Shown here: positions 40,388 to 62,971 of the stretch, in pieces
Layout of the letters: every line of letters begins with the position of its first letter
Position numbering within the stretch: position 1 is the first letter of the stretch
Source: an uncultured Eubacteriales bacterium
GTDB taxonomy: Bacteria > Bacillota > Clostridia > TANB77 > CAG-508
Direction: 5' to 3'
Assembly: GCA_949287075.1 (NCBI GenBank)
Contig: CASEEU010000012.1
Coordinates: 17,009-81,008 of the forward strand
Length of the DNA stretch: 64,000 nucleotides
Program-made: the position numbers and the translations under genes
The notes under the pieces: model-generated
Told to the model about the DNA's origin: nothing
The model's database searches: none
What the model saw: only the letters and a program-made list of their open reading frames with translations

Positions 40388-40960
40388 ATGAAGAGAGTAT
40401 TTTTTAATATCATTTTTATGATTTATTTAGTAATCGCAATATTTGTAACGGTTTGCTTATTGTCATACAATGACTATAAAGTATCAGAGTTTGGAACAAT
40501 ATCATTTGTTATTGTACCAGATAATAAATTGAATCCAGATTTTAACAAAGGTGATTTAGCAATTATAGATAAAGCGGACAGATTAGAAAAAGGAGATAAA
40601 TTTCTATACTATGATGTATATAATGAACAAGTTATTATAAGATTAGGAACAGTTAATGATATAGATGATTCAAATGAATTTGATGTAAAATACTTAATAG
40701 ATGATGGAGAATATGAAATTTCAGATGAATATGTCATAGGGCCTACATCAACAGCAACAGTAATGCAAAATGTAGGAACAGTCTTAGGAATTATAGAATC
40801 AAGATGGGGATTTCTATTTTTAATTGTATTACCAGCATTAATCGCATTTGTTAATCAAATCATGGTTGTTGCTACTGGAATAAAACAAGCAAAAAAAGAA
40901 ATTAAAGAAGAAGCAAAAGAAGATAAAAAAGAAACTAAGGAAAAGGAAAAAAATGACTGA
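40388..40960 (+). CDS. Signal peptidase I-like protein without catalytic residues
   Basis: 190 residues. It has the topology of SipW-type signal peptidases: N-terminal membrane helix, a beta domain with NKGDLAIIDKA and EKGDKFLYYD, and a C-terminal membrane helix, then a Lys/Glu-rich tail. Aligned on the GD(V/L)xI motif, the position of the catalytic Ser is Lys47 and the dyad His (THR motif) is replaced by IR. So it should be an inactive paralogue, perhaps a scaffold or a substrate-binding subunit. First gene of the locus; overlaps the next by eight bases. Confidence 0.65.
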   Translation: MKRVFFNIIFMIYLVIAIFVTVCLLSYNDYKVSEFGTISFVIVPDNKLNPDFNKGDLAIIDKADRLEKGDKFLYYDVYNEQVIIRLGTVNDIDDSNEFDVKYLIDDGEYEISDEYVIGPTSTATVMQNVGTVLGIIESRWGFLFLIVLPALIAFVNQIMVVATGIKQAKKEIKEEAKEDKKETKEKEKND

Positions 40961-41585
40961 TTTAGGTAAAAAAAACACAAAAAAAGCATTGATTTTTTTG
41001 TGTTTATGTATCATTTTACTAATTATATATGGAGTTATAAGAATATATGCACTTTTTCATAGTGAACTAGGAGCAATCGTTCAGCTTGAAAATGGAACAT
41101 GGAATATTCATGTCAATGGAACAGACATAACGAAAGGAACAGATATTAAATTTGATGTAAACAATGTTACTGTGGAAGAAAATGAACATGTTAAACCAGG
41201 GAATATAGCACCTGGTTTAACCGGTATTTTTAAAATCAATATTGATCCTAAAAATACGAATGTTTCAACCAGATATGATATCCATTTAGATGAAGAAAAA
41301 CTTACAAATCCAAATATACAAATAAAATCCATAAAAGAAACATTAAATGGAAATGAATTAGTAAAAACAGATAAAAATACATATACAGGAATCATACCAT
41401 TAGAAAAAATACAAGAGGGAACCACAAATGAAATTACAGTAGAAGTAGAATGGATGGAAAATGAAAATAATCATGAAGAAGATATTGAATTAGGAACAAC
41501 ATGGGAGGCAGAATATCAAATTTCAATTACTGTGCATGTTTGCCAATATTTAGGAGAAGAGTTAAATCAGTACACTAGTGAATAA
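40953..41585 (+). CDS. TasA/camelysin-like secreted protein
   Basis: 210 residues. One hydrophobic N-terminal segment (about 13-35), then a beta-rich domain: NGTWNIHVNGTDIT, VKPGNIAPGLTGIFKINIDP, RYDIHLDEEKL. The motif 'P-G-x-G/S-G-x-F-x-x-x-I/V' after a strand is typical of TasA-like repeat proteins that are cut by SipW-type peptidase. It lies between two such peptidase genes and overlaps the first, so it is probably processed by the locus' own enzymes. Confidence 0.6.
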   Translation: MTDLGKKNTKKALIFLCLCIILLIIYGVIRIYALFHSELGAIVQLENGTWNIHVNGTDITKGTDIKFDVNNVTVEENEHVKPGNIAPGLTGIFKINIDPKNTNVSTRYDIHLDEEKLTNPNIQIKSIKETLNGNELVKTDKNTYTGIIPLEKIQEGTTNEITVEVEWMENENNHEEDIELGTTWEAEYQISITVHVCQYLGEELNQYTSE

Positions 41586-41596
41586 CAGGAGAAAAA

Positions 41597-42136
41597 ATGT
41601 CAAATCATAAGAAAAAGAAAACAATTAGTATCATAATAGGACATATTCTTAATGTATTATTGCTTATCGTTTTTATTTTAATCATGATAGGTATTTATTA
41701 TATAGTACAAATTAAAGTATTCCAAAATGATTATGCGAATCTATTTGGATATACGTTTTTTGAAGTAGCAACAGGCAGTATGTCAGGTACAATAGAAGTA
41801 GGAGATGTTGTGATTGTCAAAATTACAAAAGATGTAAATAAAGGAGAAGTCATTGTATATAAAGAAGGAGACAATTTTATTACACATAGATTAGTAGAAA
41901 AAGATGCTAATCACTTAGTAGCAAAGGGAGATGCTAATAATAGTGAAGATAAACCTATTACAGAAGATCAGATTTTAGGAAGAGTAATTTATATGCTTCC
42001 TAAATTAGGAGTGTGGAGAAAAATCTTTTTGTCACCAGAAATCATAGGACTTATTTTACTTTTGCTTTTCCTTTTAGGAATTGTTGTGCAATTTATTTCT
42101 AAAAATGATAAAGCAAATAAAGAGGATGAAAAATAA
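41597..42136 (+). CDS. sipW: SipW-type signal peptidase I
   Basis: 179 residues. Two membrane helices flank the ER/SipW-type catalytic domain. Ser61 in ATGSMSGT and His97 in FITHRL form the Ser-His dyad; KGDANNSED carries the conserved Asp112 and Asp118. It removes signal peptides of TasA-like proteins on the outer face of the membrane. The usual SMEP is SMSG. Ribosome binding site AGGAG, eleven bases after the previous gene. Confidence 0.88.
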   Translation: MSNHKKKKTISIIIGHILNVLLLIVFILIMIGIYYIVQIKVFQNDYANLFGYTFFEVATGSMSGTIEVGDVVIVKITKDVNKGEVIVYKEGDNFITHRLVEKDANHLVAKGDANNSEDKPITEDQILGRVIYMLPKLGVWRKIFLSPEIIGLILLLLFLLGIVVQFISKNDKANKEDEK

Positions 42137-42194
42137 GAAATACAATTACAGCAATTTTATTAAAATTATGACTAAAGAAAGGAATGATAAACGA

Positions 42195-42767
42195 ATGAAT
42201 AAAAAACTGAAAAGATTATATGCAAAATTTGTCATTCTTATATTATGTCTATTAATTCTCATTAGGATCGTCGTTCTTGTTTTATCAAAATATGAAAGTA
42301 TAGCAAATTCAACAGCTAATGTGGATATTGCATTTTACTTATTAAACGAAGATTATAAAACAATGACATTAAATCTAGCATCATTATTTCCACAAGATGA
42401 TGCATATGTATATACATTTTCAATAGGAAATCAAGATGGAGAAAAAACAGCTGAAATTGATTTAGCATATAATTTAACGATTCGAACAACGACAAATTTA
42501 CCATTAACATATGAATTATATAAAAATCAAAAATATACAGATTCAGGAGCAGGGAATATTATAAAAACAAATACTGTAGAACCAGATGAATATGGTACAT
42601 ATTTTAGAAATATGACCACACAAGAAGAAAATTTATATTATAAAGAACCAAAAACAAATATATATGAATTGGTTATCCATTTTCCAGAAAATTATAATAC
42701 AACAAATTATCAAAATATTATAGAAGCTTTAGAAATCCAAGTTGATTCACATCAAATAACATCTTAA
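42195..42767 (+). CDS. TasA-like secreted protein
   Basis: 190 residues. Basic start, a membrane helix at about 11-30, then a beta domain (ANVDIAFYLLNEDYKTMTLN, ENLYYKEPKTNIYELVIHF). The region after the helix, SKYESIANSTANVDIAFY, is the kind of mature N-terminus found in SipW substrates. ATG 42195 follows AAAGGAA. Weak family assignment from pattern and context. Confidence 0.55.
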   Translation: MNKKLKRLYAKFVILILCLLILIRIVVLVLSKYESIANSTANVDIAFYLLNEDYKTMTLNLASLFPQDDAYVYTFSIGNQDGEKTAEIDLAYNLTIRTTTNLPLTYELYKNQKYTDSGAGNIIKTNTVEPDEYGTYFRNMTTQEENLYYKEPKTNIYELVIHFPENYNTTNYQNIIEALEIQVDSHQITS

Positions 42768-42786
42768 AAATAAAAAGAGGAGTCAT

Positions 42787-43740
42787 ATGCAAAAGAAAAT
42801 AGGAAATTTTATAAGCAAAAATATAAAATATAAAAAAAATCAAATAATCATTGCTACACTCATTGCACTTAGTCTTTTGTCATTTATGATTATTTTTGGT
42901 AGATATTTAACAAGTAATGTCAGCAATTTTTTTGTAAGGAGTAAAGAATTTTATTTTTTCAGTGATAAATTATCAGAAGATAATTCTGTTTATCAAGTTG
43001 ACAATTGGTCAGGTGTAGATGATTATACAATTACCATTAATATGAATAGTCGTTTAAATAATATAGAATCTGCAACTTATGATATCGGATATGATATTTC
43101 ATATACATGTAGTGATAATGCCATTTGTCAGTTAAGTAAAACACAAGGAATTATTAAAGCAGATACCAATTCAGATTTTTTTAATTTAACCATTACGCCA
43201 AATACACAATTAAAAGATGGAGACAAAGTCGTTGTTGATGTAGTTGTTCATTCAACTGCACCATATAAAAAGACTTTAAAAGGAAGATTTACATTTGTTG
43301 TAGGAAAAGAGAAACTTACTTATCAAATCACAGACAAATCACAAGATCCATATATGTTATTAAGTATCACAAATACGTTAACCTATTATATGATTAAAGA
43401 AGCATTTGATTCTTTTCATGTAGGAGATAGGATAGATATAGATACCTATTTATCATTATCAGAGGATAAAAAAGCAAAATGTTATTCTGCAGAAGTTAAA
43501 ATTGAATTTAATCCAAGGGAAGTGTTGTTTGATGTAACAAATAGTGTTTATTCAGATGCAACAAATGTAACAACGACCAATATAGATGGTAAAACATATA
43601 TAAATGGGTTTACTATCAAAATAGATGCTATCTCTAGTAGAGAAATTAGATTTTATAAGGTGGATGTCAATCAAGATTATACATATCCTAATGGTAGTAA
43701 TGATAAATCTATTATAACTATTAGCAATAAAGAGATATAA
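42787..43740 (+). CDS. Secreted protein of the surface locus, beta-rich
   Basis: 317 residues with an N-terminal membrane helix at 24-43 and a long extracytoplasmic region of strand-like segments (YTITINMNSRLNNIE, KLTYQITDKSQDPYMLLSI, GFTIKIDAISSREIRFYKVDV). Two Cys (YTCSDNAICQ) could form a disulfide. Its N-terminus matches the TasA-like neighbours. Start ATG 42787 follows AGAGGAG. Confidence 0.55.
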   Translation: MQKKIGNFISKNIKYKKNQIIIATLIALSLLSFMIIFGRYLTSNVSNFFVRSKEFYFFSDKLSEDNSVYQVDNWSGVDDYTITINMNSRLNNIESATYDIGYDISYTCSDNAICQLSKTQGIIKADTNSDFFNLTITPNTQLKDGDKVVVDVVVHSTAPYKKTLKGRFTFVVGKEKLTYQITDKSQDPYMLLSITNTLTYYMIKEAFDSFHVGDRIDIDTYLSLSEDKKAKCYSAEVKIEFNPREVLFDVTNSVYSDATNVTTTNIDGKTYINGFTIKIDAISSREIRFYKVDVNQDYTYPNGSNDKSIITISNKEI

Positions 43741-43767
43741 TGATTTTAAAGAAAGGAAATATATAAA

Positions 43768-44769
43768 ATGACAATCAATATTATGAATGAATACATTACA
43801 CTAACGAAAAAACAAATTACAACATATTTAAAACTTGTATTTGAAAACACATATGATAAAAGATATGATGATATGTATTCTGAAAAATACATAAATGCAA
43901 GATATTATAATTTCTTTAAAGGAAGTGAAAATGCGACAATCAGAAGAACAATACTAGAAGAATTGAAAAAAACATATGAATATGCCATCTCAGAAAATTT
44001 CAATGATAAAGATTTTTTAGATAAATTACATGTTTTTTTCTGTTATGTTTTATATTTTGACAATGTTGTATATTATAAAGATTTAAGAAATAAGATATTT
44101 CAAATAACAAAACTTAGAAAAAAACTTTTAAATAGAGAAAATGATGGTTTTGAAGAAAATTTATATAATGAAATGACAAAAATAAGTGATGAAAAAGAAA
44201 GATTATTAACAAAGTTTAACACAAATCAATTTTTCTTAAAGATATCAAACTATAAGAATATTGCAAATGTATATAGAGTAAACTTAAAATTCGAATTAAA
44301 ATTTCCTATGGAATATAGTGAAATGGCCATTCATAAAGTGTTTAATTCAGGAATTACAAATGAAGACAAATTAGTGATAGAATATTACTTAATTACTGTT
44401 CAAATTATAAGAGATGTGATTAAGCAAAATTTTAAAAAACAATATATTGTTGAATTTGCAGAAACATTATTGGCAAAACCCAAAAAAATAAAAAGTATAT
44501 TAAATGTTATAGACAATGCAGCGATTCAGGATAAACTATGTTTAAAAATAAGACATGAATATTTTATAGAAAATAAAGAAGCTGTATATGAACTTATGAG
44601 AGAGGGATATAGATTTGCTATTATTTTAGATAATTCTTTTGAAGCAAATTATAAAAATATGGAAAATTTAAAAATGTTTAAATATGTCATACTTAATAGA
44701 GAGTCAAAACAATATGGACAAGTTATGCAATTTAATCAAGAAGTGAAAAACAATATTATAGAAATATAG
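43768..44769 (+). CDS. Cytosolic helical protein of the surface locus
   Basis: 333 residues, no membrane segment. Entirely helical and rich in Lys and Tyr. I recognise no domain. It sits between secreted proteins and the McrB-like ATPase, 18 bases before the latter, so it may be a cytosolic part of that complex. Ribosome binding site AAAGGAAA. Confidence 0.55.
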   Translation: MTINIMNEYITLTKKQITTYLKLVFENTYDKRYDDMYSEKYINARYYNFFKGSENATIRRTILEELKKTYEYAISENFNDKDFLDKLHVFFCYVLYFDNVVYYKDLRNKIFQITKLRKKLLNRENDGFEENLYNEMTKISDEKERLLTKFNTNQFFLKISNYKNIANVYRVNLKFELKFPMEYSEMAIHKVFNSGITNEDKLVIEYYLITVQIIRDVIKQNFKKQYIVEFAETLLAKPKKIKSILNVIDNAAIQDKLCLKIRHEYFIENKEAVYELMREGYRFAIILDNSFEANYKNMENLKMFKYVILNRESKQYGQVMQFNQEVKNNIIEI

Positions 44770-44787
44770 AAAGGAAATATAATAAAT

Positions 44788-46308
44788 ATGGAGACATTTT
44801 CAAAATTTTTGTATGAATTTTTAAAACAATTCTTTTCAGGAATTACAACCGTTATGAAAGCAATTGGGGCAGGTTTTAGTCAAATGTTTGATTTTGATTC
44901 TTACCAAAATATTATAGATACTTACAAAGGAGATTTATCAGCACCTGAGTGGATTTTGGTTGTTGTATCTATTTTATGTATTTTAATATTTGTAGGATTA
45001 ATTATAGCATTGATTTATTTATTATGTAGAAAATATATAAAATTTAGAAAAAAAGCAGTGGATCAAGATGCTTTATTAGAAGAAGTGGCTTCATTAAATA
45101 AGCAAGTAGAAACTTTAATGAAGGAAAAAGAAAATATTATGGCAATGAAGATATCACAATTGGGGCTAAAACCAGATGAATCACCAGAAATTGATGAACA
45201 AGAGCAAGAAGAAGACTCCAATAACCCAGATATCCGTTTTGCAAAATTGCATGAAATTGATTTAAAATATGAAGATTATGAACAACCAGATTATGAAAAT
45301 TCATTTACATTACCAGAATTATGTGAAAATTTTAGAAATTTTTCTGCTTCAAAATTGAAATTATATTATAAACCAGAAATGGTCAGAATATTTATTTCAG
45401 CTTTAGCTTCTACTAAACTCATTATTTTACAAGGTATTTCTGGAACTGGTAAAACATCTCTTGCATATGCATGGGGAAAATTTATGAGACATGACTCATG
45501 TATTGCATCTGTTCAACCCTCATGGAGAGATAGAACAGATATGTTCGGATATTTTAATGAATTCACAAAAAAATTCAATGAAACAGAAATGTTAAAAGAA
45601 ATGTATACAGCTGGCTATGTAGATGAAGTATTTACAGTTATTTTAGATGAGATGAACCTATCACGTGTGGAATATTATTTTGCAGAAATGCTTTCTATTT
45701 TGGAAATGCCAAATAGAGATGAATGGATTATCGAATTAGTTCCTAATAGCTGGAAAACTGACCCCAAATATATTGAAGGAGGAAAGATAAAAGTACCAGC
45801 TAATATGTGGTATATTGGTACCATCAATAATGATGATTCTACATTTGCTGTAACAGACAAGGTATATGATAGAGCAATGCCGATAGATATCAATGAAAAA
45901 AGTGTTGCATTTGAACCAGTTTATACAGAAGCGCAAGGAATTAATTTTACATATTTAGATAAGTTATTTGAAACAGCAATACAGGAAAATCCAATTTCAG
46001 AAGAAGCAATGGATAAAATAGAACAAATGGATAATTATGTTATACAACATTTTCGTATTGCATTTGGTAATCGTATTGTTGCACACATGAAAAAATTTGT
46101 ACCTGTATATGTAGCTTGTGGTGGAGATGAAATTAGTGGTGTAGATTATTTCATTGCCAAAAAAATATTAAGAAAATTTGAACAATTGAATATGTCAGCT
46201 ATTAGAGATGAAATAGATCCATATATTCAATTTTTAAATACAACCTTTGGTAAAAATAAAATGAAAGAATGTATAGACTATCTATTAAGATTGAAAAAGA
46301 TGGCATAG
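44788..46308 (+). CDS. Membrane-anchored McrB-like AAA+ ATPase
   Basis: 506 residues. N-terminal region with one membrane helix (about 52-75), a coiled coil (84-115), then an AAA+ module of the McrB clade: Walker A GISGTGKTS with Lys222, Walker B VILDEMNLSRVEYYFAE with Asp287-Glu288, and the sensor IGTINNDDS around Asn347-Asn348, followed by the arginine-finger region DKVYDRAM. The usual McrB sensor MNTxD is TINNDD. Classical McrB hydrolyses GTP and drives a nuclease; here there is a membrane anchor and no DNA-binding domain. Partner: the DUF2357-like gene 17 bases downstream. Confidence 0.85.
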   Translation: METFSKFLYEFLKQFFSGITTVMKAIGAGFSQMFDFDSYQNIIDTYKGDLSAPEWILVVVSILCILIFVGLIIALIYLLCRKYIKFRKKAVDQDALLEEVASLNKQVETLMKEKENIMAMKISQLGLKPDESPEIDEQEQEEDSNNPDIRFAKLHEIDLKYEDYEQPDYENSFTLPELCENFRNFSASKLKLYYKPEMVRIFISALASTKLIILQGISGTGKTSLAYAWGKFMRHDSCIASVQPSWRDRTDMFGYFNEFTKKFNETEMLKEMYTAGYVDEVFTVILDEMNLSRVEYYFAEMLSILEMPNRDEWIIELVPNSWKTDPKYIEGGKIKVPANMWYIGTINNDDSTFAVTDKVYDRAMPIDINEKSVAFEPVYTEAQGINFTYLDKLFETAIQENPISEEAMDKIEQMDNYVIQHFRIAFGNRIVAHMKKFVPVYVACGGDEISGVDYFIAKKILRKFEQLNMSAIRDEIDPYIQFLNTTFGKNKMKECIDYLLRLKKMA

Positions 46309-46325
46309 AGGGGAGAGAATAACAG

Positions 46326-47465
46326 TTGGAAAACTTAGAAGTTATAGAACTATATGAAAATTCAAATCATGAGAAAACAAAAACATTTATAGATAGTGCT
46401 GAGTCTACTCTGAAAGTGCAAACAGAAAAAAAGTATATAACAAGAGATATAGAGTGGATAAATATGATGGAAGAAGTTATGCCACATATAGATTCCATTT
46501 TTAGGACTCCAAATCGTTTTATAAAAAATGAAGAAGAAACTGTAAAAATAGAACAAGCAAGAAAAGTATCAGTAGAAACGATAAAGCATTTATCTAAACA
46601 TACAAATTTTATACAAGATATTGATAATGAAACAGGAGATGTTATACCATCCAAATTATTAAATGTAAGAAAAGAAGAAACCTATGAGACATACGAAAAT
46701 CGTTTAATATATACATTAATTCAAAATATGAAGTATTTTGTCAATATAAGAAAAAATTCATTATTGCAACCAATAGGTAGTGATAATAAAGAAGAAAACA
46801 AAGATAATAAACAATTAGAATATAATGCAAAATCTAAACTAAATGATGAAGAAGTAGATATTAATGTTTCTATTAACTCCAAGCTAGATACTGAGCAAAA
46901 AGATGATAAAGAAAGAAATAAAAGCTTATTGTTACGAATAGAAGAAATAGAAAGAAAAATATCAGATATTGAATCAACTGAAGTATACAAAGTACTTGAT
47001 AAAGCAAATATAACACTTGTAAAAGAACCAATTAGAAAAACAAATGTTGTTTTGAAGAATGTTCATTTTCAATATGCTATGAAATTATGGGAATTTTTAA
47101 AGGTCAATTTTGATGAACAAACCATAGAATCAGAAGATAATAAAGACTACATGGACAATGGACAATTAAAGAAGATGATGGACGAAGCATTTTTATTACA
47201 ATTTTTAGCAATGAAAACTTTAGACGAAGATACTATGGAAAAACAAGATATAAAAAAAGAAATAAAAGGTATTGTAGTAGAGCAAATGCTAGATAAAATG
47301 TTAGATATTGATGAAGATATAACTGAAGAACAATTAAGACAAATGGTAGCTGAAAAATATGAAGTGATAAAATATAAGAAAATGGCAGTTTTACAAGATA
47401 TACAAAAGATATTTAAAAAACACATTGACCAATACGAAGAAATGGTTGAGATAAAGGGGAATTAA
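46326..47465 (+). CDS. DUF2357-like (McrC-related) partner lacking a visible nuclease domain
   Basis: 379 residues, cytosolic, helical. The N-terminal third resembles the DUF2357/DUF524 partners of McrB ATPases: KVSVETIKHLSKHTNFI, then LLNVRKEETYETYENRLIYTL. A charged coiled-coil linker follows, then helices up to the end. No PD-(D/E)xK nuclease motif can be seen. It starts with TTG 46326 after GAGGGGAGAG and follows the ATPase by 17 bases, so the two form a pair. Confidence 0.65.
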   Translation: MENLEVIELYENSNHEKTKTFIDSAESTLKVQTEKKYITRDIEWINMMEEVMPHIDSIFRTPNRFIKNEEETVKIEQARKVSVETIKHLSKHTNFIQDIDNETGDVIPSKLLNVRKEETYETYENRLIYTLIQNMKYFVNIRKNSLLQPIGSDNKEENKDNKQLEYNAKSKLNDEEVDINVSINSKLDTEQKDDKERNKSLLLRIEEIERKISDIESTEVYKVLDKANITLVKEPIRKTNVVLKNVHFQYAMKLWEFLKVNFDEQTIESEDNKDYMDNGQLKKMMDEAFLLQFLAMKTLDEDTMEKQDIKKEIKGIVVEQMLDKMLDIDEDITEEQLRQMVAEKYEVIKYKKMAVLQDIQKIFKKHIDQYEEMVEIKGN

Positions 47466-47468
47466 AAA

Positions 47469-48080: not shown

Positions 48081-48148
48081 AGATAATAAGACAAAAAGAA
48101 ATAAGAAACATATATAATAAATTGCAGAAATTAATGAAGGGAAGAAAT

Positions 48149-48748: not shown

Positions 48749-48764
48749 AATTGCTACATTTTAA
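48745..48764. terminator. Small hairpin between convergent TasA-like genes
   Basis: Seven-base AT stem (48745-48751 with 48758-48764) spanning both stop codons. Weak but symmetric. Confidence 0.35.
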
Positions 48765-49354: not shown

Positions 49355-49439
49355 TTCTACACCTCTTTTGTTTTTTGTTCATTTTAACATATGTGATTTT
49401 TAAAAGCAAGAGATAGATTTTTAAGAAAGGAATTTTTAA

Positions 49440-50177: not shown

Positions 50178-50220
50178 TGCAAAGCAAAATACATAAAAAT
50201 GAATATCAACAACAAAAAAT

Positions 50221-50266: not shown

Positions 50267-50280
50267 TTTTTTGATATGAA

Positions 50281-50309: not shown

Positions 50310-50368
50310 ATGAACAGTAAATAAAAAAACAACGAATGATAAGTTGTAAGATAAAAGGAGAGGGGAAA

Positions 50369-53544: not shown

Positions 53545-53571
53545 TTTTACAAAATTGTGGAGATTATGCAA

Positions 53572-56500
53572 ATGAAAAAAACAAATAAAAGAAGGAATAT
53601 ATTTATACTAATTTTATTAATGATATTCATAATTATATTACTGAGAGCTTTTAGTAATTCTAGAGCAAATAAAGTAATAGAAATCACTGCTAATATAAAA
53701 GATAATAGCAGTCTATTAGTTGATGAAAAAACTACATTAGAAGCTATAAATGAAGGTGAAAGTGGTTTTTCAATCACACTTCCTGATGTTATTAATACAA
53801 AAAAAGTCACGAAATATATTGTTACACAAAAAGAAATTATAGAAAATGAGGAGAAAGAAAAACAGGAAAATGTAACTAACACAACAAATGAAACTACAAA
53901 TGATATAAGAAATAATGAAGGAATAGATACAATAGATGTTAAACAAGCAGATGTGACAAATCCACAAACCGTAGAAAAAACTTCTAAAGTTGAAAAGTTA
54001 CCAGGAGAAAAAATTTACTTAACTCAAGAAGAACGTGAAAATTCAAGTATAACATTAACAGTAGAATATGATAAAAAAGTAATTAAGGGAGAAACATTAT
54101 ATCATAAAAAATTAGTTTTAGAAGACAATGAAAACGAAGAACAGAATCAAAATATAACCAATAGAGAAAAAGCTATAGATAATGAAGATTCTGCAGATAA
54201 TGAAATTTTATCTGTTTCTGGATATATGCCACATGATACAGAGTTAGAAGCAGCAGAACTAGAAATTGATAAATTTGAAAATGAAATATCAGAAAAATAT
54301 CCAAATCATTTGATTACAGAAAATTTTGATATAAAACTAATGTCACAACAAAAAGAATATTTAACTGAAGAATTTGATCAAACTTTAGACATTGAAATAA
54401 CTATACCAAATCAAGATAAAGCGTATACAATACTTGAAATTCAAGAAGATTCCACACAAGAAGAAAAGATACAAGAAAATACAGAACAAAAAGACACAAA
54501 GCAAGGTATGACACAAGACAATGTGCTAGAACAAACAAATACAATAAAAGAATTACAAGACATCAAAGTAGAAGATAATAAACTTCAATTTGAAGTAAAA
54601 GAATTACAGTCATATATACTTTTAGAATTACAAGAATCTCAAAATGCTATATCATCACAAAATAATATGGCCACTCAAAACACACCTTCAAATGATGGGA
54701 TTTCTTTAATGGCAGTAGAAGGAGAAAATACAACATTAAAGATAGATGATTATGAATCAGATAAGAACTATTATTTAGGTTTAAATTATACAGAAAATAT
54801 GTCTAAAACAAATTCTGGAAAATATACAGAAAGTAATTTAAAAGAAGTTACTATCAATTATTATGGATATGATTATGATTTAACAGAATTGGTTACACCA
54901 GAAAAATATGATATCACATTAAATGCTACTGCTAGAAGAACATCTACAGGTAGTGTTCAACAAGGAGGTAGCGGATGGAATAGATATTATACCAGAACAG
55001 ATACTATTACTTGCACAGTTAGTGGCATTCAGAATTTAAAAGACCAATATCCAGAATTTCATGCAAATTCTGGTTGGACAATGGAAATGCAAGTTCCAAA
55101 TACGAATTTTTCAAACTATTTTAATGAATCAGAAACTTCAAATGATAATTCTTCAAATGGAATCAATGTTAGTATTAGTAATGGAAACATGATAATAACG
55201 GGAATAGATACATCTGGTTTGCAAGGTAATAGTGATACATGGACATTTACATTTTATGTTTCATTTAGGGGAAATAATCGAAATACCATTAATAATATAT
55301 CTTATAACAATCTATCTGTAAATTCTTTTAAAACAACGATTACGATAGGAGATGAATACACGCCTTATGGAACGATTTCTGATACAGAACCACAAACATT
55401 AGTGTCATATAGAAAATGTGTCCCAGTAGATAGTAATGGAAATATATCTATAGAATTAATTGATAATCCATTTATGAATAGACCACTTGAAAAAGGATTT
55501 AATGGTTGGATAACTAATAATACGAATTACGCAAATAGTATTAGTACAAATACCAATACATTTGTTCAAACACTAAATACAAATATAAGTAATATAAGAG
55601 ATAATTCTGGAAATCTTGTAATCAATTTATATCCTGACTGGATTGATGCCAATGTTATCTTTGTTAGTTCCATTGGAAGTGGTTCAAACTCAGGAACCTC
55701 TCCAACAAGTCCAATAAATAACAATTGGAATGTGATTAGTAGTAAATTAAATGCAAACAGGAAAACTTGTACAAATGCTTCTGATAGAGAAGTTAATATT
55801 GTTGTACTCATGAATGGGGTTTTAGATGGTTATGATGTAATGAATCCAAATACAGCTTTTACATTAACCAGTTTATATGATGGTGTCAATTATGGAAACA
55901 CAGGAACATATTTAGACGTACAAGATATGGATATCACTTTAGATAGTGATTTACAATTAGATTATGTATATATTTCTTCTGGTGAATCTTATGCTTCTTC
56001 CTATGCGACAACAGATGGAACAAGAGCTACAACACCATGTATTTATGGAAATATGTATAATTTAAGAATTGCTAGAGGTACTGTTCCTACAAATAGTAGC
56101 AATTGTACTTTTACGCAGGTACAAGGTGGATATTACAATCATAGTAGTTCAGAATATAGAGTGATTGTTGAATCAGGTAAATATTATTCTGCCTTATTAT
56201 ATCGAGCTGGTTCAGGTTCTAACTCATCAAGTTCGACAACAGCAAATGCCACTTTTGTCATAGGCTCTGATATTGATAGAGTTAACAACAACAATGAAAA
56301 TCTTAAAATTTATGATAGAATGGCATCAAAGACTTCGAGTTCAACATGTTCACCATATGGAAATGGTAAAGTCGTAAATACCATTATTAAGAGTGGAACA
56401 ATTGGTGTAGATTTTTTCAATAATGCAAGTACAGCAGATGATAGTGATAGAAATTATGCTGGAATATATGTTGGAGGACATGGACAAACTGGATATGATA

Positions 56501-59500
56501 AATCTGATAGATATTTACTTGTGGAAGGTGGAAATATTGCCAATATTGTCGGTGGGTTAAATGTTACAGAAGAAGATATGTATAAAACATATATGTATAT
56601 TAAAGGTGGTAATATTCTTAATATCACAGGAGGAGCTGGTTATACACATACATATGGAGATAGAATTATCCAAATCACTGGTGGATATGTAAAATATAGT
56701 ATCAGTGGTGGATCTAACGGAGTAGCAGCAAGTTCTGATAGTAACAATGGACAATTAACAGGTGAATCATTTATCTATGTAGGTGGAAATGCACAAATTG
56801 GTGCATCATCAACAATAAGTAGCAATGGAAATGAAACTGTCAATATAACCAATACAGATGAAGTTTTATATGGTGTAAATGCTGGATCTGTTTGTGGTGG
56901 TGCAAATGGAAACACGAGATATGCAGGCCAAACAGATAAATCATGTATTATTATTGATGGAAATGCGGTTGTTCATAATAATGTTTTTGGTGGAGGAAAT
57001 TATGGAATTATTGGTTCATCAAATATTCAAGGACCTGATGTTATAGAATTTCATGATGAGACTTCTAGTTTTACTGAAAATAAAGAATATTTAATAGCAA
57101 CTTCTTCATCTGGAGGAAATGGACTTGTCGTAAGTGGAAATCAATTAGGAAATCAATATATGTCAACAGCAACGATTCCATCAGATACATCAAAATGGAT
57201 ATTTGAAAGAGAAAGTGGAAACAATTATTACATAAAAAATGCATCAACAGGTCAATATATATATATAAGTGATTTTAACGGTTCATTTTTTTCTGGATAT
57301 ACTGCAGAAATCACGTTAAGCACAACAAATAAAACTGCTTTTACTGTTCAAGGTTCAAGCACAAAAACAATTACCTATACATATACAACAACAGGATGGT
57401 TTGGAGAAACTTATACTTTATATTTGGGTTATAATAATGGTTGGGAAATCACCAGTAGTTCTAACACTCGTAATCTACACTTTTTAACATATAAAGAAGT
57501 GGAAACAGAAGACTCCCCAGATCTAGATACCTTAGTTACAATTAAGGTTTTAGGCGGAAGTGTCAATCACAATATATATGGTGGTGCAAACCAAAACCAT
57601 ATATATGGAACTGTTGATATCGATATAGAAAACGGAAATGTGAAAGGAATTGTTTATGGTGGTTCCAATATCAGAGGGGATATTTATGGATCCGTATTGA
57701 TGGACATTTCTGGAGGACAATTAGGAACCAAAGCCTCTACAGATGGATTTGACTATTCCAATACAGATGTTGCCTTTGGAGGCGGTCTTGGAGAAGAGAC
57801 AAATGTTAATGGAAGAATCATATTAAATATTACTGATCAAAAAAATAATGTCCATGTTTATGGAAATATATATGGTGGAAGTTCTCTTGGAAAAGTGAAT
57901 AGTGATATCACTGTTAATATTCAAGATTTACCAAGTATAGCCAATATTATATCTATCAATGGTTATGTATTTGGTGGGGGAGAAGGAGATTCTGATACAC
58001 CAGCTTCTGTATCAGGAAATGTAGCTGTTAATATAGATGGGAGCAATTTAGAAAATTGTAGTATATTTGGCGGAAGCAATATCAATGGAACAATCACTGG
58101 TACAATAGATGTTAATATCGGAAAAACATACGAATCCAAAATTCTTGCTGTATATGGTGGAGGAAATCAAGCCTCTATAACAAGTGAAACGGCAAAAGTA
58201 CATGTTTATTTATTAGACTATGCCAATGTAACAAATGCATTTAATGGTGGTAAATCAGCAGATTTAGTTTCATCTGGCAAAGATGATGAAACAAGAGCTA
58301 TCTATTTACAAGGCGGAACTGTTCAAAATATTTATGGTGGATCTGATTTATCAGGTACTGTTACAGCAAGTCATGTGTATATAGAAAGTGGAAATGCCAC
58401 AAACATATATGGCGGAAATAACCAAGGTGGCATTACGGAAATAACTCATATCATCATAACTGGAGGAAATTCTCAAGACGTATATGGTGGAGGAAATCAA
58501 GCAATTTGCAATGAAACAAATGTCAATATAACAGGAGGAACCCAGTCAAGAATATATGGTGGAGGAGACCAAGCAGGCATTAATACAAATACATATGTAA
58601 ATCTTACAAATGCAAATATTGAAGACACAATATATGGAGGAGGAAACCAAGGAACCGTTACACAAGATACATATGTCCATATAAAAGATTCTATAATAGG
58701 AAATAGTGTATATGCTGGAGGAAACGGAACATCAGCAGTTGTCTATGGCAATACAAATCTTGTCATGGAAGGTCAAAACGAAGTAACCAAAAATGTCTTT
58801 GGTGGTGGAAACCAAGCAGCAACAGGAACAGAAAATGAAAATAATTCTACAAGTACAGTCAATATTGTTGGAGCAAAAATTGGTGGAAATGTATATGGTG
58901 GTGCCAATACATCTGTTGTATATGGTACAACACAAACCAACATAGGATATGATACAGTCGGAGATACCTCACTTGAAATAGGAGATATTGAAATTATAGG
59001 AACTGTATTTGGTGGTGGAGAGGCCAATGCTTCTGGTTCAGAAATATATGACTTTTCATTTATTAGTGTAACAAAAGGGATTGATATACAAATAGATGGA
59101 AACAAACATTCAGAATTTAAAATAACAGGAAGTATATTTGGTTCTGGAAATGCTTCAAGTACAAGTGGAACAAGTTATATCAATATCCAAAATTATGGTA
59201 CAGCAGATGATCCTCAAAGCAATATATCTATTCAAAGAACAGACTGTGTTACCATTAGTAATTCAGCCATATCTTTATCAGGTGCAACAGATAGAACAAA
59301 CGAATATTCTGATACATTTTTCTCTTTAAGTAGAGTAGATCAAGTAAAATTAAAAAATAACTCCACATTGTATTTATGCAATGGAGCAAACTTATTAGAG
59401 AAATTAGACAGTTTAGTAGATATCAATGGAGAGGAAGAAGTTGGAAAAGTTACTATTAACCCAGATACAGGAGAAATGACAGAAAAAAATGTAGATAATA

Positions 59501-61263
59501 GAATATATATGTTAGAAGGTAAAAATCTAAATGTAGCAACAAATGAGCAAGCAACTGCCTATGGACAAGTACATGGAATGTTTTTCTTTGGATTATTTAC
59601 CAATAGTACGAGTCCAAGTACAAGTACTGCTTTTTATCATTATTCATTTGAAAATGGAGATGAAATAACCAATGAAGGTACATTTTCATCTAACTCTTAT
59701 GTAATGGCACAACATATGGTAGACCATAATACAACGATAGATGGATTTTATACCAATTATAAAGATGATGGAAAAATAAAAGTCGATTATGTTGGTACAA
59801 CACCAGAAGATGATGTATATTATATGTGGGTAGTAGGAGATGCCATGAATGTTACAAGATTTGAAGTTTCTTTAACTGCATCTAAATATGCTACTTTAGG
59901 AACATATGAATTATTATTACAAGGATTTTCTGATCCAAACTTAAAAATGTCAGTAAGCGGATTTTCAGCTGGATTAGAAGATGGTGTAACATTAGTAGAC
60001 CAAAATGAAATTAATACCATTGAACCAGATGAAGAAAAAGCAAACACGATATATGGATTAACAATGAGAACAGGAAATGTTGGTTGGCAAACAAAAGGAA
60101 CAACAAATTTCTTAACGCAAAATGGTGGTTCATATACTGGAACAAACAACTATGATAAAGATAATTCATCATATACACCAACATTAAATTTATGTTTATA
60201 CCATTCAGAAAACATAACCGTAGAACAACCTCTGGGAACTGCAACCATTAGATTACAAGTATTAACACCAATAGATGATCTAAATTATGATATTTCGTAT
60301 ATAGACATAGTTATTACATTATCAACCGCATTATATCAAAATGACTTTTATGAGGCTGCTATCACACCAGGTGAAGAATATGGATTATTTACAACAACAG
60401 AAACCTCTATTACAAGTAAAAGTGCATTTTCAGCATATTATTCATTATATGTAGAAGATTTTTCAAATAGTAAATATGTAAATGATTATGAAACATACCA
60501 AAGAGTTTTAATATCAAGAGATTCTAATAATTTGCCATATGTACTACCAGAAAATACAAAAATCACCATGTTAGATATGGTAACCAATACATATTACTAT
60601 TATATTGTAACAAGTGAAGATGTTAGAAATGGTAAATTTGAATATAACTTATCAGACTTTCTATCTATGGGAAGTAGTGATGCTAAATTTAATGAAAAAG
60701 AAGCAAGCAAACAGTATTATCATAGTGAAGAAGATGTTATCTATGAGAACTTTATATTCCATATCAATTTTGCAGAAAGCAATATAACAAATGACATATA
60801 TAATAATTCGCTATTAATGGAATTAAGAGATACTGAAAACGAAACCTTGGTAGGTGTATTAGGAATTCAAAGAGATAGTATGGTGTATAGTGTATATAAA
60901 GATAAAGATGCTACTATAAAATTAAATGGTAATTTATCACCAGAAACTTTATATTTAGGAAATTCATTAAACTTAAATGTTATTACAGAATTTACACAAA
61001 CTATTGTAGACTCAAAAACCATTTATGATACACAATATTTTGATCAAAAATTAGGAATCAAAATTAGCATTTATGATATCAATGGAAACCAACTAGGGTT
61101 AGACAGTTTATTCGGTGTAAATTTTGAATTAGATGGAAATTTATATTATCCTAGAGTTGATGGAACAACAAGAATATGTATAGCAGATAAAGTCACAAAT
61201 GTATTAGCAAAATTAAAAATGAATACAATTGATAACACAACATTAGCAACACGGAGATTATAA
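53572..61263 (+). CDS. Giant secreted beta-solenoid repeat protein, C-terminus frameshifted
   Basis: About 2,563 residues (start ATG 53572; ATG 53566 also possible). Membrane helix at about 9-30; a Glu/Gln/Asn-rich stalk to about 380, including LSVSGYMPHDTELEA; beta domains to about 720; then roughly 1,100 residues of short turns of the type (I/V)(Y/F)GG(G/S)N(Q/I), repeated more than fifteen times, as in a right-handed beta-helix. Around residue 1170-1310 an insert of another type sits in the helix (KEYLIATSSSGGNGL ... YLGYNNGWEI). After 1920 come beta-sandwich-like segments. It stops at 61261, but the frame shifted by one base goes on (see next feature). No LPXTG or other sorting signal is visible. 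Confidence 0.8.
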   Translation: MKKTNKRRNIFILILLMIFIIILLRAFSNSRANKVIEITANIKDNSSLLVDEKTTLEAINEGESGFSITLPDVINTKKVTKYIVTQKEIIENEEKEKQENVTNTTNETTNDIRNNEGIDTIDVKQADVTNPQTVEKTSKVEKLPGEKIYLTQEERENSSITLTVEYDKKVIKGETLYHKKLVLEDNENEEQNQNITNREKAIDNEDSADNEILSVSGYMPHDTELEAAELEIDKFENEISEKYPNHLITENFDIKLMSQQKEYLTEEFDQTLDIEITIPNQDKAYTILEIQEDSTQEEKIQENTEQKDTKQGMTQDNVLEQTNTIKELQDIKVEDNKLQFEVKELQSYILLELQESQNAISSQNNMATQNTPSNDGISLMAVEGENTTLKIDDYESDKNYYLGLNYTENMSKTNSGKYTESNLKEVTINYYGYDYDLTELVTPEKYDITLNATARRTSTGSVQQGGSGWNRYYTRTDTITCTVSGIQNLKDQYPEFHANSGWTMEMQVPNTNFSNYFNESETSNDNSSNGINVSISNGNMIITGIDTSGLQGNSDTWTFTFYVSFRGNNRNTINNISYNNLSVNSFKTTITIGDEYTPYGTISDTEPQTLVSYRKCVPVDSNGNISIELIDNPFMNRPLEKGFNGWITNNTNYANSISTNTNTFVQTLNTNISNIRDNSGNLVINLYPDWIDANVIFVSSIGSGSNSGTSPTSPINNNWNVISSKLNANRKTCTNASDREVNIVVLMNGVLDGYDVMNPNTAFTLTSLYDGVNYGNTGTYLDVQDMDITLDSDLQLDYVYISSGESYASSYATTDGTRATTPCIYGNMYNLRIARGTVPTNSSNCTFTQVQGGYYNHSSSEYRVIVESGKYYSALLYRAGSGSNSSSSTTANATFVIGSDIDRVNNNNENLKIYDRMASKTSSSTCSPYGNGKVVNTIIKSGTIGVDFFNNASTADDSDRNYAGIYVGGHGQTGYDKSDRYLLVEGGNIANIVGGLNVTEEDMYKTYMYIKGGNILNITGGAGYTHTYGDRIIQITGGYVKYSISGGSNGVAASSDSNNGQLTGESFIYVGGNAQIGASSTISSNGNETVNITNTDEVLYGVNAGSVCGGANGNTRYAGQTDKSCIIIDGNAVVHNNVFGGGNYGIIGSSNIQGPDVIEFHDETSSFTENKEYLIATSSSGGNGLVVSGNQLGNQYMSTATIPSDTSKWIFERESGNNYYIKNASTGQYIYISDFNGSFFSGYTAEITLSTTNKTAFTVQGSSTKTITYTYTTTGWFGETYTLYLGYNNGWEITSSSNTRNLHFLTYKEVETEDSPDLDTLVTIKVLGGSVNHNIYGGANQNHIYGTVDIDIENGNVKGIVYGGSNIRGDIYGSVLMDISGGQLGTKASTDGFDYSNTDVAFGGGLGEETNVNGRIILNITDQKNNVHVYGNIYGGSSLGKVNSDITVNIQDLPSIANIISINGYVFGGGEGDSDTPASVSGNVAVNIDGSNLENCSIFGGSNINGTITGTIDVNIGKTYESKILAVYGGGNQASITSETAKVHVYLLDYANVTNAFNGGKSADLVSSGKDDETRAIYLQGGTVQNIYGGSDLSGTVTASHVYIESGNATNIYGGNNQGGITEITHIIITGGNSQDVYGGGNQAICNETNVNITGGTQSRIYGGGDQAGINTNTYVNLTNANIEDTIYGGGNQGTVTQDTYVHIKDSIIGNSVYAGGNGTSAVVYGNTNLVMEGQNEVTKNVFGGGNQAATGTENENNSTSTVNIVGAKIGGNVYGGANTSVVYGTTQTNIGYDTVGDTSLEIGDIEIIGTVFGGGEANASGSEIYDFSFISVTKGIDIQIDGNKHSEFKITGSIFGSGNASSTSGTSYINIQNYGTADDPQSNISIQRTDCVTISNSAISLSGATDRTNEYSDTFFSLSRVDQVKLKNNSTLYLCNGANLLEKLDSLVDINGEEEVGKVTINPDTGEMTEKNVDNRIYMLEGKNLNVATNEQATAYGQVHGMFFFGLFTNSTSPSTSTAFYHYSFENGDEITNEGTFSSNSYVMAQHMVDHNTTIDGFYTNYKDDGKIKVDYVGTTPEDDVYYMWVVGDAMNVTRFEVSLTASKYATLGTYELLLQGFSDPNLKMSVSGFSAGLEDGVTLVDQNEINTIEPDEEKANTIYGLTMRTGNVGWQTKGTTNFLTQNGGSYTGTNNYDKDNSSYTPTLNLCLYHSENITVEQPLGTATIRLQVLTPIDDLNYDISYIDIVITLSTALYQNDFYEAAITPGEEYGLFTTTETSITSKSAFSAYYSLYVEDFSNSKYVNDYETYQRVLISRDSNNLPYVLPENTKITMLDMVTNTYYYYIVTSEDVRNGKFEYNLSDFLSMGSSDAKFNEKEASKQYYHSEEDVIYENFIFHINFAESNITNDIYNNSLLMELRDTENETLVGVLGIQRDSMVYSVYKDKDATIKLNGNLSPETLYLGNSLNLNVITEFTQTIVDSKTIYDTQYFDQKLGIKISIYDINGNQLGLDSLFGVNFELDGNLYYPRVDGTTRICIADKVTNVLAKLKMNTIDNTTLATRRL

Positions 61264-61753
61264 AATACAAATAGAATCATTTGGTTCACCAGATGGAATT
61301 TACTATGGATTAACTGCATCTGACAAGATAGAGTTAGATGTCAGAATTATTAATTCAGCTTTTGGTCTAAAAGTTGTTAATCAAGATTCTAACAAAATAA
61401 TCGACAAAGAAACTGGTACCAATGAATCTAATAGTACGACAGTAGAAAGTATTGTGGAATATTCATCAAAATTGTCAAACCCTAACATTGCAGTATCATT
61501 ATATAGAAGAGATTATGATAAAGAATATGCACAAACCTATACATTAGTTGACTTACAAGAATTTGTATTAAACAATTTAACAAAAACTGCAAGAGAAAAA
61601 GAATATGAAGTATCTACATCACCAACTGAAAAAATAACAAATCATTTTATTTTTAAGCAGAACTTGATGACAGGAACATATAAGCTTGTATATAAATTAT
61701 ATGATGGAGATGTATATGTAGGAGAAGCATTTGATTACTTAGTCATAAAATAA
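61250..61753 (+). pseudogene. Out-of-frame C-terminal continuation of the giant protein
   Basis: Starting at about 61250 a second frame reads GDYKIQIESFGSPDGIYYGL and continues for 168 residues to TAA 61753, ending GEAFDYLVIK. It has no start codon with a binding site near 61264; the internal ATG at 61454 also lacks one. The sequence style fits the preceding beta domains exactly, so one extra base near 61243-61253 has cut it off. Confidence 0.7.
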
Positions 61754-61824
61754 TACATCTTCCAAAAAGACACTGACCAGAAATTCTTTTTCAATTTGTT
61801 AATAGAAAGGGATAACAATAAATT

Positions 61825-62403
61825 ATGAAATATGATGTTAATTCAATCAATAAGAGAAAAAAATATGCAAATACGATAAAGAAAATATTGGCCGTCATTT
61901 TGGTTATTTTAATTTATAACATAATACTAATTTTTATTTCTTCTGAAAATCATGGAATAGGATTATTTGGATATAGAGCATATATTATTACATCAGATAG
62001 CATGGAACCTTCCATTAAACATGGGGATGTTGTTATTGTTAAAAAATCTAAAGAAGAAAATTTACAAACAGGAGATGTTATAACTTTTGAACAAAATCAA
62101 GAGCTAATTACACACCGTATCCAAAAAATAGAAGAAGACCAGACAACTAATGAAAAAACATATATAACAAAAGGTGATAACAACAATATAGAAGATAGTG
62201 AAAATATAAAATTTTCTGCAATTATTGGGAAATGTATCTTAACGATACCATATTTAGGAAACATCATTTCAGTACTTGAAAATAAATTAATTGTTTTAAT
62301 TATAATCCTTATCATTTTAATTTTATTCTTTTTAAAGATACAAAAACAAGAGAAATTAGAAAATAGGAGAGAAAAAAAGAAAATTGAAGAAGAAAAAAGA
62401 TAG
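61825..62403 (+). CDS. sipW: SipW-type signal peptidase I
   Basis: 192 residues. Ser59 in SDSMEPSIKHGD, His97 in LITHRI, and the KGDNNNIED motif: the most canonical of the five. Membrane helices at 20-38 and 150-172; a Lys/Glu tail. Ribosome binding site AAAGGGA. It overlaps the next, degenerate, paralogue by 20 bases. Confidence 0.9.
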   Translation: MKYDVNSINKRKKYANTIKKILAVILVILIYNIILIFISSENHGIGLFGYRAYIITSDSMEPSIKHGDVVIVKKSKEENLQTGDVITFEQNQELITHRIQKIEEDQTTNEKTYITKGDNNNIEDSENIKFSAIIGKCILTIPYLGNIISVLENKLIVLIIILIILILFFLKIQKQEKLENRREKKKIEEEKR

Positions 62404-62971
62404 AAAAATTAAATTTGAACAAAAACGTAAATTGAAAAAAATCATGATAGCGATTATATCTTTTATCATAACAATATGTGTACTATATAATGTACTATTT
62501 CTAATAAATACAACGATATCGCAAAAAGATTATTTTCATGTATGTGGCATCAGTTTTTTTAGAGTCAAAACAGATTTAATGGAAAATGATTTGCACAAGA
62601 ATGATTTCGTAATTGTAAAAGAAGTAACTAATAGTGAATTGCAAGTAGGAGATATTATCGCATATGAAATGAATGATCAAATTCGAATTAATAAAATTGT
62701 AGATAAAAAAGACGGATATACAACAAAGTTTAATCAAAATTATTATCCAGATATTGAAAAAATAACAATGAATGAAATTATCGGAAAAAAGATAGTTAGT
62801 ATACCATTCTTGGGAATTATCTTAGATATTTTGCAATCTAAGATAATTAGTATCCTTGTACTATTATTTTTAATGTTTATTTTCTGGTATAATACATATA
62901 CCCATACTAAAAGAAAAGAACGTGAGAGAAAAAAGAAAAAAAGCGATTTGCAGAAACAAGTAAATCTTTAA
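62384..62971 (+). CDS. Signal peptidase I-like protein without catalytic residues
   Basis: 195 residues from TTG 62384 (or 175 from ATG 62444). Same topology and beta motifs (FFRVKTDLMENDLHKNDFVIV, ELQVGDIIAYE, IIGKKIVSIPFLG) as its neighbour, but the catalytic Ser of SMEP is Leu and the dyad His of THR is missing (IRINKI). It pairs with an active enzyme, as does the inactive copy at 40388. Confidence 0.65.
   Translation: MKKKKDRKIKFEQKRKLKKIMIAIISFIITICVLYNVLFLINTTISQKDYFHVCGISFFRVKTDLMENDLHKNDFVIVKEVTNSELQVGDIIAYEMNDQIRINKIVDKKDGYTTKFNQNYYPDIEKITMNEIIGKKIVSIPFLGIILDILQSKIISILVLLFLMFIFWYNTYTHTKRKERERKKKKSDLQKQVNL

What the first reader, a model, noticed from the sequence alone, without database searches (positions are those of the whole stretch)
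40388..62971. A surface assembly locus that joins SipW-type peptidases, TasA-like subunits, a giant beta-solenoid protein and a McrBC-like ATPase pair
Seen: five signal peptidase I-like genes, about seven single-helix secreted beta proteins, a 2,560-residue YGGGNQ-repeat protein, and between them a McrB-clade AAA+ gene with its DUF2357-like partner and unknown cytosolic helical proteins, spaced by few bases and nearly all on one strand. Known: SipW processes TasA/TapA amyloid subunits in Bacillus; McrB ATPases normally drive DNA restriction. Inference: an AAA+ pair has been recruited to remodel, export or assemble surface fibres, with each peptidase serving its own subunit set. I know of no described system with this mix.
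Basis: partly seen in the sequence, partly recalled or inferred. Interest (0 to 1): 0.85.

Follow-up and report, generated by a model that had tools for sequence, protein, structure and literature searches.

The report
McrB-type motor wired to surface fibres
A Clostridia genome carries a conserved gene cluster in which a motor related to DNA-restriction enzymes, with a partner that lacks the usual DNA-cutting domain, sits beside enzymes and subunits for secreted surface fibres, probably to build or control those fibres.

Summary
The gene order at 40,388-62,971 recurs across the window's bacterial family and, partly reordered, in a second copy in the same genome. All 53 distinct fetched loci with this AAA+ type have a SipW-type signal-peptidase relative within 3 kb, against 0 of 7 next-nearest AAA+ loci and 0 of 16 ordinary McrB-like loci. 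The SipW-linked AAA+ genes lie on one side of one branch (94/96). No PD-(D/E)xK nuclease was found in their DUF2357 partners, so restriction is unlikely. Refinements: two of the five 'peptidases' are degenerate; secreted protein T6 has the TasA fibre as best structural match (low TM-score); ORF333 has a degenerate EAL-like fold; 9 of 13 distant loci carry an EAL or PilZ gene beside the core, suggesting c-di-GMP control. The association is not unknown: a 2024 eLife paper named such loci CoCoPALM in one paragraph and deferred analysis. Best reading: a CoCoPALM variant, a membrane-anchored McrB-type NTPase that drives or gates assembly of TasA-class surface fibres. The association is shown; the mechanism is inferred. 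The c-di-GMP link is strong by synteny in distant members and weak in the window's own family.

The parts
39317..40228 (-). u303: conserved divergent flanking gene (PF17279 DUF5344, just over cut-off); role unknown
   Evidence: Pfam 1.6e-6, 28.9 bits against 27; beside or near the cassette in most near loci
40388..40960 (+). SPa: SipW-like pseudo-peptidase, two hydrophobic helices
   Evidence: SipW profile 7.8e-7, below cut-off; no His at the site in 28 of 28 rows, Ser in 3 of 26 with letters (sites matched by eye)
40953..41585 (+). T1: secreted single-helix protein
   Evidence: hydropathy and synteny
41597..42136 (+). SPb: SipW-type signal peptidase, Ser/His/Asp present
   Evidence: TIGR02228 2.3e-21; triad in 29 of 29 rows
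42129..42767 (+). T2: secreted single-helix protein (start uncertain)
42787..43740 (+). T3: secreted single-helix protein
43768..44769 (+). ORF333: helical N-terminal half plus degenerate EAL-like domain
   Evidence: AlphaFold pLDDT 90.5; Foldseek hits 1-40 are EAL-domain structures, TM-scores under 0.5; Pfam EAL only E 0.037
44788..46308 (+). AAA: McrB-clade AAA+ NTPase with N-terminal hydrophobic helix (from about residue 56)
   Evidence: PDB profile hits only McrB; invariant GISGTGKT, LDEMN, NNDD; hydropathy
46326..47465 (+). D2357: McrC N-terminal-domain homologue, no nuclease domain found
   Evidence: PF09823 1.3e-11, no PF04411; hhalign to an McrC set, probability 93.5% over that domain
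47469..48080 (+). SPc: SipW-type peptidase, Ser/His kept, first Asp replaced
   Evidence: TIGR02228 5.1e-25
48149..48748 (+). T4: secreted single-helix protein (start uncertain)
48761..49354 (-). T5: secreted single-helix protein, on the opposite strand in most near loci
49440..50177 (+). T6: membrane-anchored TasA-like protein, the most widely conserved secreted part
   Evidence: model pLDDT 84.7; best PDB match TasA fibre 8aur, low TM-score; homologues across the class
50369..51382 (+). T7: secreted protein, T6 relative, likely fibre subunit
   Evidence: cross-hits between T6 and T7 profiles; synteny
51970..53544 (+). ORF524: helical protein without predicted TM, unknown role; found by profile only in near loci
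53566..61263 (+). SOL: giant secreted Gly-rich repeat protein; homology goes on in another frame to about 61753
61825..62403 (+). SPd: SipW-type peptidase, triad present
   Evidence: TIGR02228 3e-32
62384..62971 (+). SPe: SipW-like protein without catalytic Ser/His here (start uncertain)
   Evidence: TIGR02228 2e-16

Best explanation
The locus is a CoCoPALM-type system: a McrB-derived NTPase that has left DNA restriction and is anchored in the membrane, with a DUF2357 partner without nuclease that probably stimulates it as McrC's N-terminal domain stimulates McrB. It works with SipW-type peptidases that release TasA-class subunits (T1-T5, T7). A membrane-anchored TasA-like protein (T6) serves as base or starter. 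Pseudo-peptidases (SPa, SPe) act as platform or chaperone. A degenerate EAL protein (ORF333) acts as cytosolic switch, by analogy with FimX in type IV pili. The motor would drive or gate fibre assembly, or release of the giant protein, from the cytosolic side. Shown by sequence: gene association, clade, no detectable nuclease domain, degenerate peptidases. Predicted: EAL-like and TasA-like folds. Inferred: fibre product, energy coupling, roles of T6, SPa and SPe, c-di-GMP control.
For: 53 of 53 distinct loci of this AAA+ type have an SP-family gene within 3 kb, 50 of 53 a D2357 neighbour and 46 of 53 T6 in the fetched stretch; 0 of 7 and 0 of 16 loci of the other groups have an SP gene or T6. 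49 such AAA+ rows on one side of one branch, 94/96. A second copy in the genome keeps most of the order. PF04411 absent in 9 of 9 partners tested from the two upper groups (in 6 of them PF09823 was also not detected), against present in 4 of 5 partners of ordinary McrB genes, one of the 4 below cut-off. T6 best PDB hit is the TasA fibre. ORF333 Foldseek hits are EAL. 9 of 13 distant loci carry an EAL over cut-off or a PilZ gene just upstream of T6; in three genomes the only EAL found is this one.
Against: No experiment. T1-T7 match no Pfam family over cut-off, so TasA kinship rests on one model with TM-scores 0.34/0.36, and a beta-glucosidase chain scores nearly as well by E-value. ORF333-to-EAL profile comparison is not significant (probability 1.4%) and its TM-scores are under 0.5. 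One distant genome (G734) has no EAL match at all, and 7 of 10 near genomes have none. GGDEF does not distinguish genomes with and without the locus (28 of 28). The AAA+ matches a PADLOC defence-candidate model, PDC-M26A, at 4.5e-34. SipW-type peptidases occur in genomes without this ATPase (61 of 103 family genomes have a TIGR02228 match), so such export does not need it. The tandem-AAA relatives have no SipW neighbour.
Confidence: 0.55

Rival explanations
1. Membrane-stationed anti-phage defence: an McrBC-derived NTPase senses phage at the envelope, and the secreted proteins form a surface barrier or decoy.
For: McrB ancestry; PADLOC PDC-M26A 4.5e-34; patchy distribution, 14 strong of 117 family genomes.
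Against: No nuclease, methylase or restriction family over cut-off among the cassette's proteins (Pfam); conserved secretion genes, and EAL genes in distant loci, instead.
Confidence: 0.12
2. The NTPase pair does not touch the fibres but controls the inner machinery, for example remodelling the SipW pseudo-peptidases or regulating expression or secretion in response to c-di-GMP.
For: EAL/PilZ neighbours; pseudo-peptidases.
Against: No DNA-binding family over cut-off in the cassette; the TM anchor and T6 adjacency fit an assembly role as well.
Confidence: 0.22
3. Chance hitch-hiking: the ATPase pair and the fibre genes are merely carried on one mobile island.
For: Patchy presence within genus and family; a XerC-like recombinase gene at 34949-35932 (below the XerC cut-off).
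Against: Order kept at 59-98% AAA+ identity in near genomes, and a core kept across 10 families of the class; 53 of 53 against 0 of 23.
Confidence: 0.03

Closest known systems
CoCoPALM systems (eLife 2024, PMC11090510; passages read)
   Same: McrB-like NTPase with an N-terminal TM part; McrC homologue; association with signal-peptidase family proteins.
   Different: The paper gives one paragraph and defers analysis; its main text has no TasA, SipW, EAL, diguanylate, biofilm or filament. Added here: nuclease-free partner against nuclease-bearing relatives, pseudo-peptidases, TasA-like T6, EAL-like ORF333 and the long synteny. The paper says that McrC homologues of its wider coiled-coil branch often lack the nuclease.
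tapA-sipW-tasA of Bacillus subtilis (PMC9674648, passages read)
   Same: SipW with secreted beta proteins; T6 model's best PDB match is the TasA fibre.
   Different: No ATPase in that operon in the passages read ('ATPase' 0 occurrences); here several peptidases, seven small secreted proteins, a giant protein and an NTPase pair.
sipW-bsaABCRSD of Clostridium perfringens (PMC7395162, passages read)
   Same: Clostridial SipW with filament-forming BsaA.
   Different: No ATPase reported ('ATPase' 0 occurrences); two-component regulation rather than EAL.
PcdA of Staphylococcus aureus (PMC10602043, passages read)
   Same: McrB-family AAA+ protein moved from restriction to another task, there cell division.
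   Different: PcdA has EVE domains, degraded Walker motifs and no McrC; here Walker motifs are intact and a DUF2357 partner is kept.
FimX/type IV pili (structures named; function recalled)
   Same: EAL-fold protein beside an NTPase linked to a surface-filament system.
   Different: No pilin, pilus ATPase or prepilin peptidase family over cut-off among Pfam/NCBIfam hits of the cassette (a few weak pilin-like hits below cut-off).

Membership tests
CoCoPALM | McrB-like NTPase with NxD motif, usually followed by E or D | tested here: met
   NNDD in every tier-1 copy where the site was found, ungapped to NMDE/NIDE of the ordinary McrB-like relatives; the letters also fit NxxD (ungapped to E. coli McrB NTAD), so the letters alone do not decide
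CoCoPALM | fusion to FtsB-like TM and coiled-coil domain | tested here: inconclusive
   TM helix found by hydropathy; coiled coil judged by eye; homology to FtsB not tested
CoCoPALM | signal-peptidase family neighbours | tested here: met
   53 of 53 loci
CoCoPALM | coiled coils in the McrC homologue | not tested
   no coiled-coil prediction run
McrBC type IV restriction | PD-(D/E)xK nuclease in the DUF2357 partner | tested here: not met
   PF04411 absent in the window protein and in 8 of 8 tier-1/tier-2 partners (PF09823 seen in only 2 of those 8); present in 4 of 5 tier-3 partners
SipW (NF046067 equivalog) | score over 190 bits | tested here: not met
   best 98.8 bits, SPd; the broader TIGR02228 is met by four of five
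SipW-type peptidase | catalytic Ser and His | tested here: met
   SPb 29/29 rows, SPc 34/34, SPd 8/8 with letters at Ser; NOT met for SPa and mostly not for SPe (some rows are the same DNA)
TasA/camelysin | Pfam family match over cut-off | tested here: not met
   no Pfam match over cut-off in T1-T7
TasA-class fibre fold | beta-sandwich closest to TasA | tested here: inconclusive
   T6 best hit 8aur E 2.8e-4, prob 1.00, TM 0.34/0.36; rank 2 is a beta-glucosidase at 5.2e-4
EAL domain | Pfam EAL over cut-off | tested here: not met
   ORF333 E 0.037; structural similarity only. Intermediate L089 protein hits both the ORF333 profile (7.9e-10) and EAL (2.6e-4, below cut-off)

The most novel reading that the evidence does not exclude
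A c-di-GMP-gated McrB-type motor assembles TasA-class donor-strand fibres: a Gram-positive, independently evolved counterpart of the type IV pilus machine (motor, membrane base T6, inactive peptidases as platform, FimX-like degenerate EAL switch), derived from a restriction system.
Probability: 0.3. Interest if true: 0.87.

Novelty: new variant of a known kind. Interest (0 to 1): 0.68.

Why it matters
If right, TasA-class matrix fibres, described as assembling by donor-strand exchange with no ATPase mentioned in the passages read, have a powered, second-messenger-controlled form in Clostridia, and a restriction motor has been turned into a surface-assembly machine. It gives the named but unanalysed CoCoPALM loci a concrete, testable function and a minimal core (T6, SipW-type peptidase, AAA+, DUF2357, EAL/PilZ).

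Tried and rejected
Restriction as the function: set aside, because no nuclease domain was found in the DUF2357 partners tested while ordinary McrB neighbours have it in 4 of 5.

Chance linkage: rejected.

T5 as an invertible segment: inverted repeats in 48400-49800 are short or imperfect and AT-rich, none convincing to me. RNA element: no Rfam match at gathering score in 30000-64000. Promoter scan of 40000-54000 near background, 122 found against 106.1 +/- 9.9 in shuffles. McrC in the PDB for D2357: none; only one weak designed protein. ORF333 against PDB by sequence: none. ORF333 profile against the distant EAL set: not significant. ORF524 has only a weak PADLOC JetC hit (0.0014), which I take for coiled-coil similarity. 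Paper searches for McrB with TasA (13 papers, 10 listed), McrB + signal peptidase + pilus + EAL domain (0), SipW + EAL domain + degenerate (1), SipW + TasA + AAA ATPase (1) gave nothing that, by titles and abstract starts, describes this system.

The 53 are loci, not genomes: some are pieces or copies from one genome (window and L026; L027 and L041; L055 and L057; L109 and L110). Four loci with identical AAA+ sequence (L046, L052, L093, L100) were dropped before the count. Some tier-3 contigs are only 3.5-4 kb (L126, L128). AAA+ rows under 300 aa or without a Walker A match were left out of the tree. The catalytic sites of SPa and SPe were matched to the others by eye; L029's SPa has a His one place off the site.
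Full report
What is there. The window lies in an unnamed 1.86-Mb genome of 89 contigs; its nearest named relatives in the AAA+ tree are uncultured Clostridia, and two record titles of relatives name goat colon and sheep ileum. In 40,388-62,971 the order is SPa-T1-SPb-T2-T3-ORF333-AAA-D2357-SPc-T4-(T5 on the minus strand)-T6-T7-ORF524-SOL-SPd-SPe. SP are signal-peptidase-like, T1-T7 small secreted proteins each with one N-terminal hydrophobic stretch, SOL the giant protein. Gaps from SPa to SPc are -8 to 27 bases.

Conservation. The AAA+ protein is found with strong scores in 14 of 117 genomes of the same family (16 of 117 at E <= 0.001, two of them weak) and 43 of 385 of the order (46 with three weak ones). 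The genome itself holds a second copy, 60% identical for the AAA+ and 33% for D2357. I fetched flanks and labelled genes by BLAST and by HMMs made from the near loci. In the near loci the same order recurs up to contig or stretch ends, with single genes missing, split or fused in some; T5 lies on the minus strand in most. The second copy keeps most parts with some reordering (SPd, an SPc relative, T4 and T6 follow ORF524).

Wider distribution. The class-wide search (391 genomes, 37 with a match) gave three levels. Tier 1 (480 bits or more for copies that are not cut, nearly all with the N-terminal TM part) occurs in ten families counting f1 and f5. Tier 2 (about 336-454 bits) lacks that part, mostly AAA-D2357-AAA in tandem (5 of 7 loci). 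Tier 3 is McrB-like proteins under about 112 bits. In tier 1 the distant loci keep T6, T7-like proteins, a SipW-type peptidase, AAA and D2357, not every part in every locus. An SP-family gene lies within 3 kb in 53 of 53 distinct tier-1 loci, against 0 of 7 tier-2 and 0 of 16 tier-3 loci; D2357 is a neighbour in 50 of 53; T6 is in the fetched stretch in 46 of 53, the misses being near contig or stretch ends except L037, which lacks it in about 9 kb downstream. A maximum-likelihood tree of 77 rows puts the 49 SipW-linked rows on one side of one branch (94/96; 93% of 200 bootstrap trees), tier 3 on one side of another (97/99), and tier 2 not as one group. The program warns of long branches, mostly in tiers 2 and 3, and near-copies inflate clustering.

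Not restriction. The AAA+ profile's only PDB matches are McrB. Walker A (GISGTGKT), Walker B (LDEMN) and the NNDD sensor are intact. D2357 matches PF09823 (1.3e-11) and aligns with a set of five McrC-like proteins only in that domain (75 columns, probability 93.5%). PF04411 (the nuclease) is absent from the window protein and from 8 of 8 tier-1/2 partners tested; in six of those eight PF09823 itself was not detected either, so absence there is weaker evidence. It is found in 4 of 5 tier-3 partners, one below cut-off.

Peptidases. Catalytic residues, from an alignment of each family (rows include the window and a few duplicates; SPa and SPe sites matched by eye): SPb has Ser, His and Asp in 29 of 29. 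SPc has Ser and His in 34 of 34, but the first Asp is replaced in 33 of 34. SPd has Ser in 8 of 8 with letters there and His in 10 of 10. SPa has His at the site in 0 of 28 and Ser in 3 of 26. SPe lacks Ser in 4 of 5 rows (two of these are the same DNA); L032's SPe has it. So SPa and this SPe are best read as pseudo-enzymes. The 14 AAA+ genomes of the family have 3-11 TIGR02228 matches each; of the 103 others 61 have at least one at E <= 0.001. So SipW-type export exists without the ATPase, while no AAA+ genome here lacks it.

Fibre subunits. T1-T7 match no Pfam family over cut-off. T6, alignment of 28 rows, modelled at pLDDT 84.7, has the TasA fibre (8aur) as best PDB match (E 2.8e-4, probability 1.00), with Pyrobaculum bundling pili at rank 4 and a Sulfolobus filament at rank 41; TM-scores are low (0.34/0.36), and beta-glucosidase chains fill several of the top ranks, the first at rank 2 with 5.2e-4. 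TasA assembles by donor-strand exchange (PMC9674648, passages).

EAL/c-di-GMP. ORF333's model (pLDDT 90.5) has EAL-domain structures as Foldseek hits 1 to 40, led by FimX (E 4.4e-4; only four hits at E <= 0.001; TM-scores under 0.5). By sequence the case is weak (Pfam E 0.037; hhalign probability 1.4%), but a protein at the same place in L089 hits both the ORF333 profile (7.9e-10) and Pfam EAL (2.6e-4, below cut-off). Of 13 distant tier-1 loci, 8 have an EAL gene over cut-off just upstream of T6 (7, plus L110 through), one has PilZ there (L115), L089 has the weak form, L090 only the ORF333-profile match, L109 begins at a contig edge, and L104's genome (G734) has no EAL match at all. In G471, G725 and G409 the only EAL found in the genome is the one in this cassette. 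A crude product of placement chances is about 1e-13, but it was taken over only the eight positive of 12 distant genomes and two are of one genus, so it overstates the case. By eye on an alignment of nine rows, only L114 keeps the usual catalytic letters (motif recalled). In the window's family 7 of 10 genomes searched have no EAL match, and GGDEF occurs in 28 of 28 genomes with or without the locus. So c-di-GMP control is supported by synteny in the distant loci and open in the window's own family.

Prior art. CoCoPALM was named in 2024 (PMC11090510; [quoted passage not shown] A search for the word listed ten papers: that paper, its preprint and eight unrelated by title. I therefore file this as a CoCoPALM variant. 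New here, as far as the searches show in this library: the TasA-like core protein T6, the EAL/PilZ link, the pseudo-peptidases, the contrast with nuclease-linked relatives, and the long conserved synteny. PcdA (PMC10602043, passages) is precedent for a McrB protein moved to another cellular task.

Mechanism and confidence. Shown: association, clade, no detectable nuclease domain, degenerate peptidases. Predicted: folds of ORF333 and T6. Inferred: a membrane-anchored ring stimulated by D2357 that drives or gates assembly of TasA-class fibres, with T6 as base, SPa/SPe as non-catalytic platform and ORF333 as switch.

Noticed in passing
window 61250-61753, also L028 and L137: The giant SOL gene stops at 61263, but homology to relatives' C-termini goes on for about 163 codons in another frame. 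Two near relatives (G042, G149) share the frame change; a third (G329) and six more distant ones read through in one frame. Codon differences downstream between the window and L028 are 30 synonymous to 7 non-synonymous (upstream 7 to 2), so the second part seems still selected or recombined: a shared frameshift or a programmed one.
   Followed up: partly
L112, L116-L119: AAA-DUF2357-AAA tandem relatives without SipW neighbours; in L112 and L118 they lie beside transglutaminase-core proteins with weak AgI/II C2 matches.
   Followed up: partly
window 48761-49354: T5 is on the opposite strand between T4 and T6 in most near loci, though + in L029 and in the second copies L026 and L041. No convincing inverted repeats flank it.
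   Followed up: partly
window 39317-40228: u303 (DUF5344-like) lies divergently beside or near the cassette in most near loci; role unknown.
   Followed up: no
L026 3-19360 (own genome, contig C15): A second, diverged copy of the cassette with four SP genes over the TIGR02228 cut-off, a fifth below it, and a SOL-like protein.
   Followed up: partly
L054 10001-11525, L056 10001-11522: The AAA gene is split into two reading frames in these two bins, with its neighbours present; assembly error or decay.
   Followed up: no
SPc, window 47469-48080: SPc rows keep Ser and His but replace the first Asp of the usual GD motif by Ile, Val or Leu in 33 of 34, keeping a later Asp.
   Followed up: no
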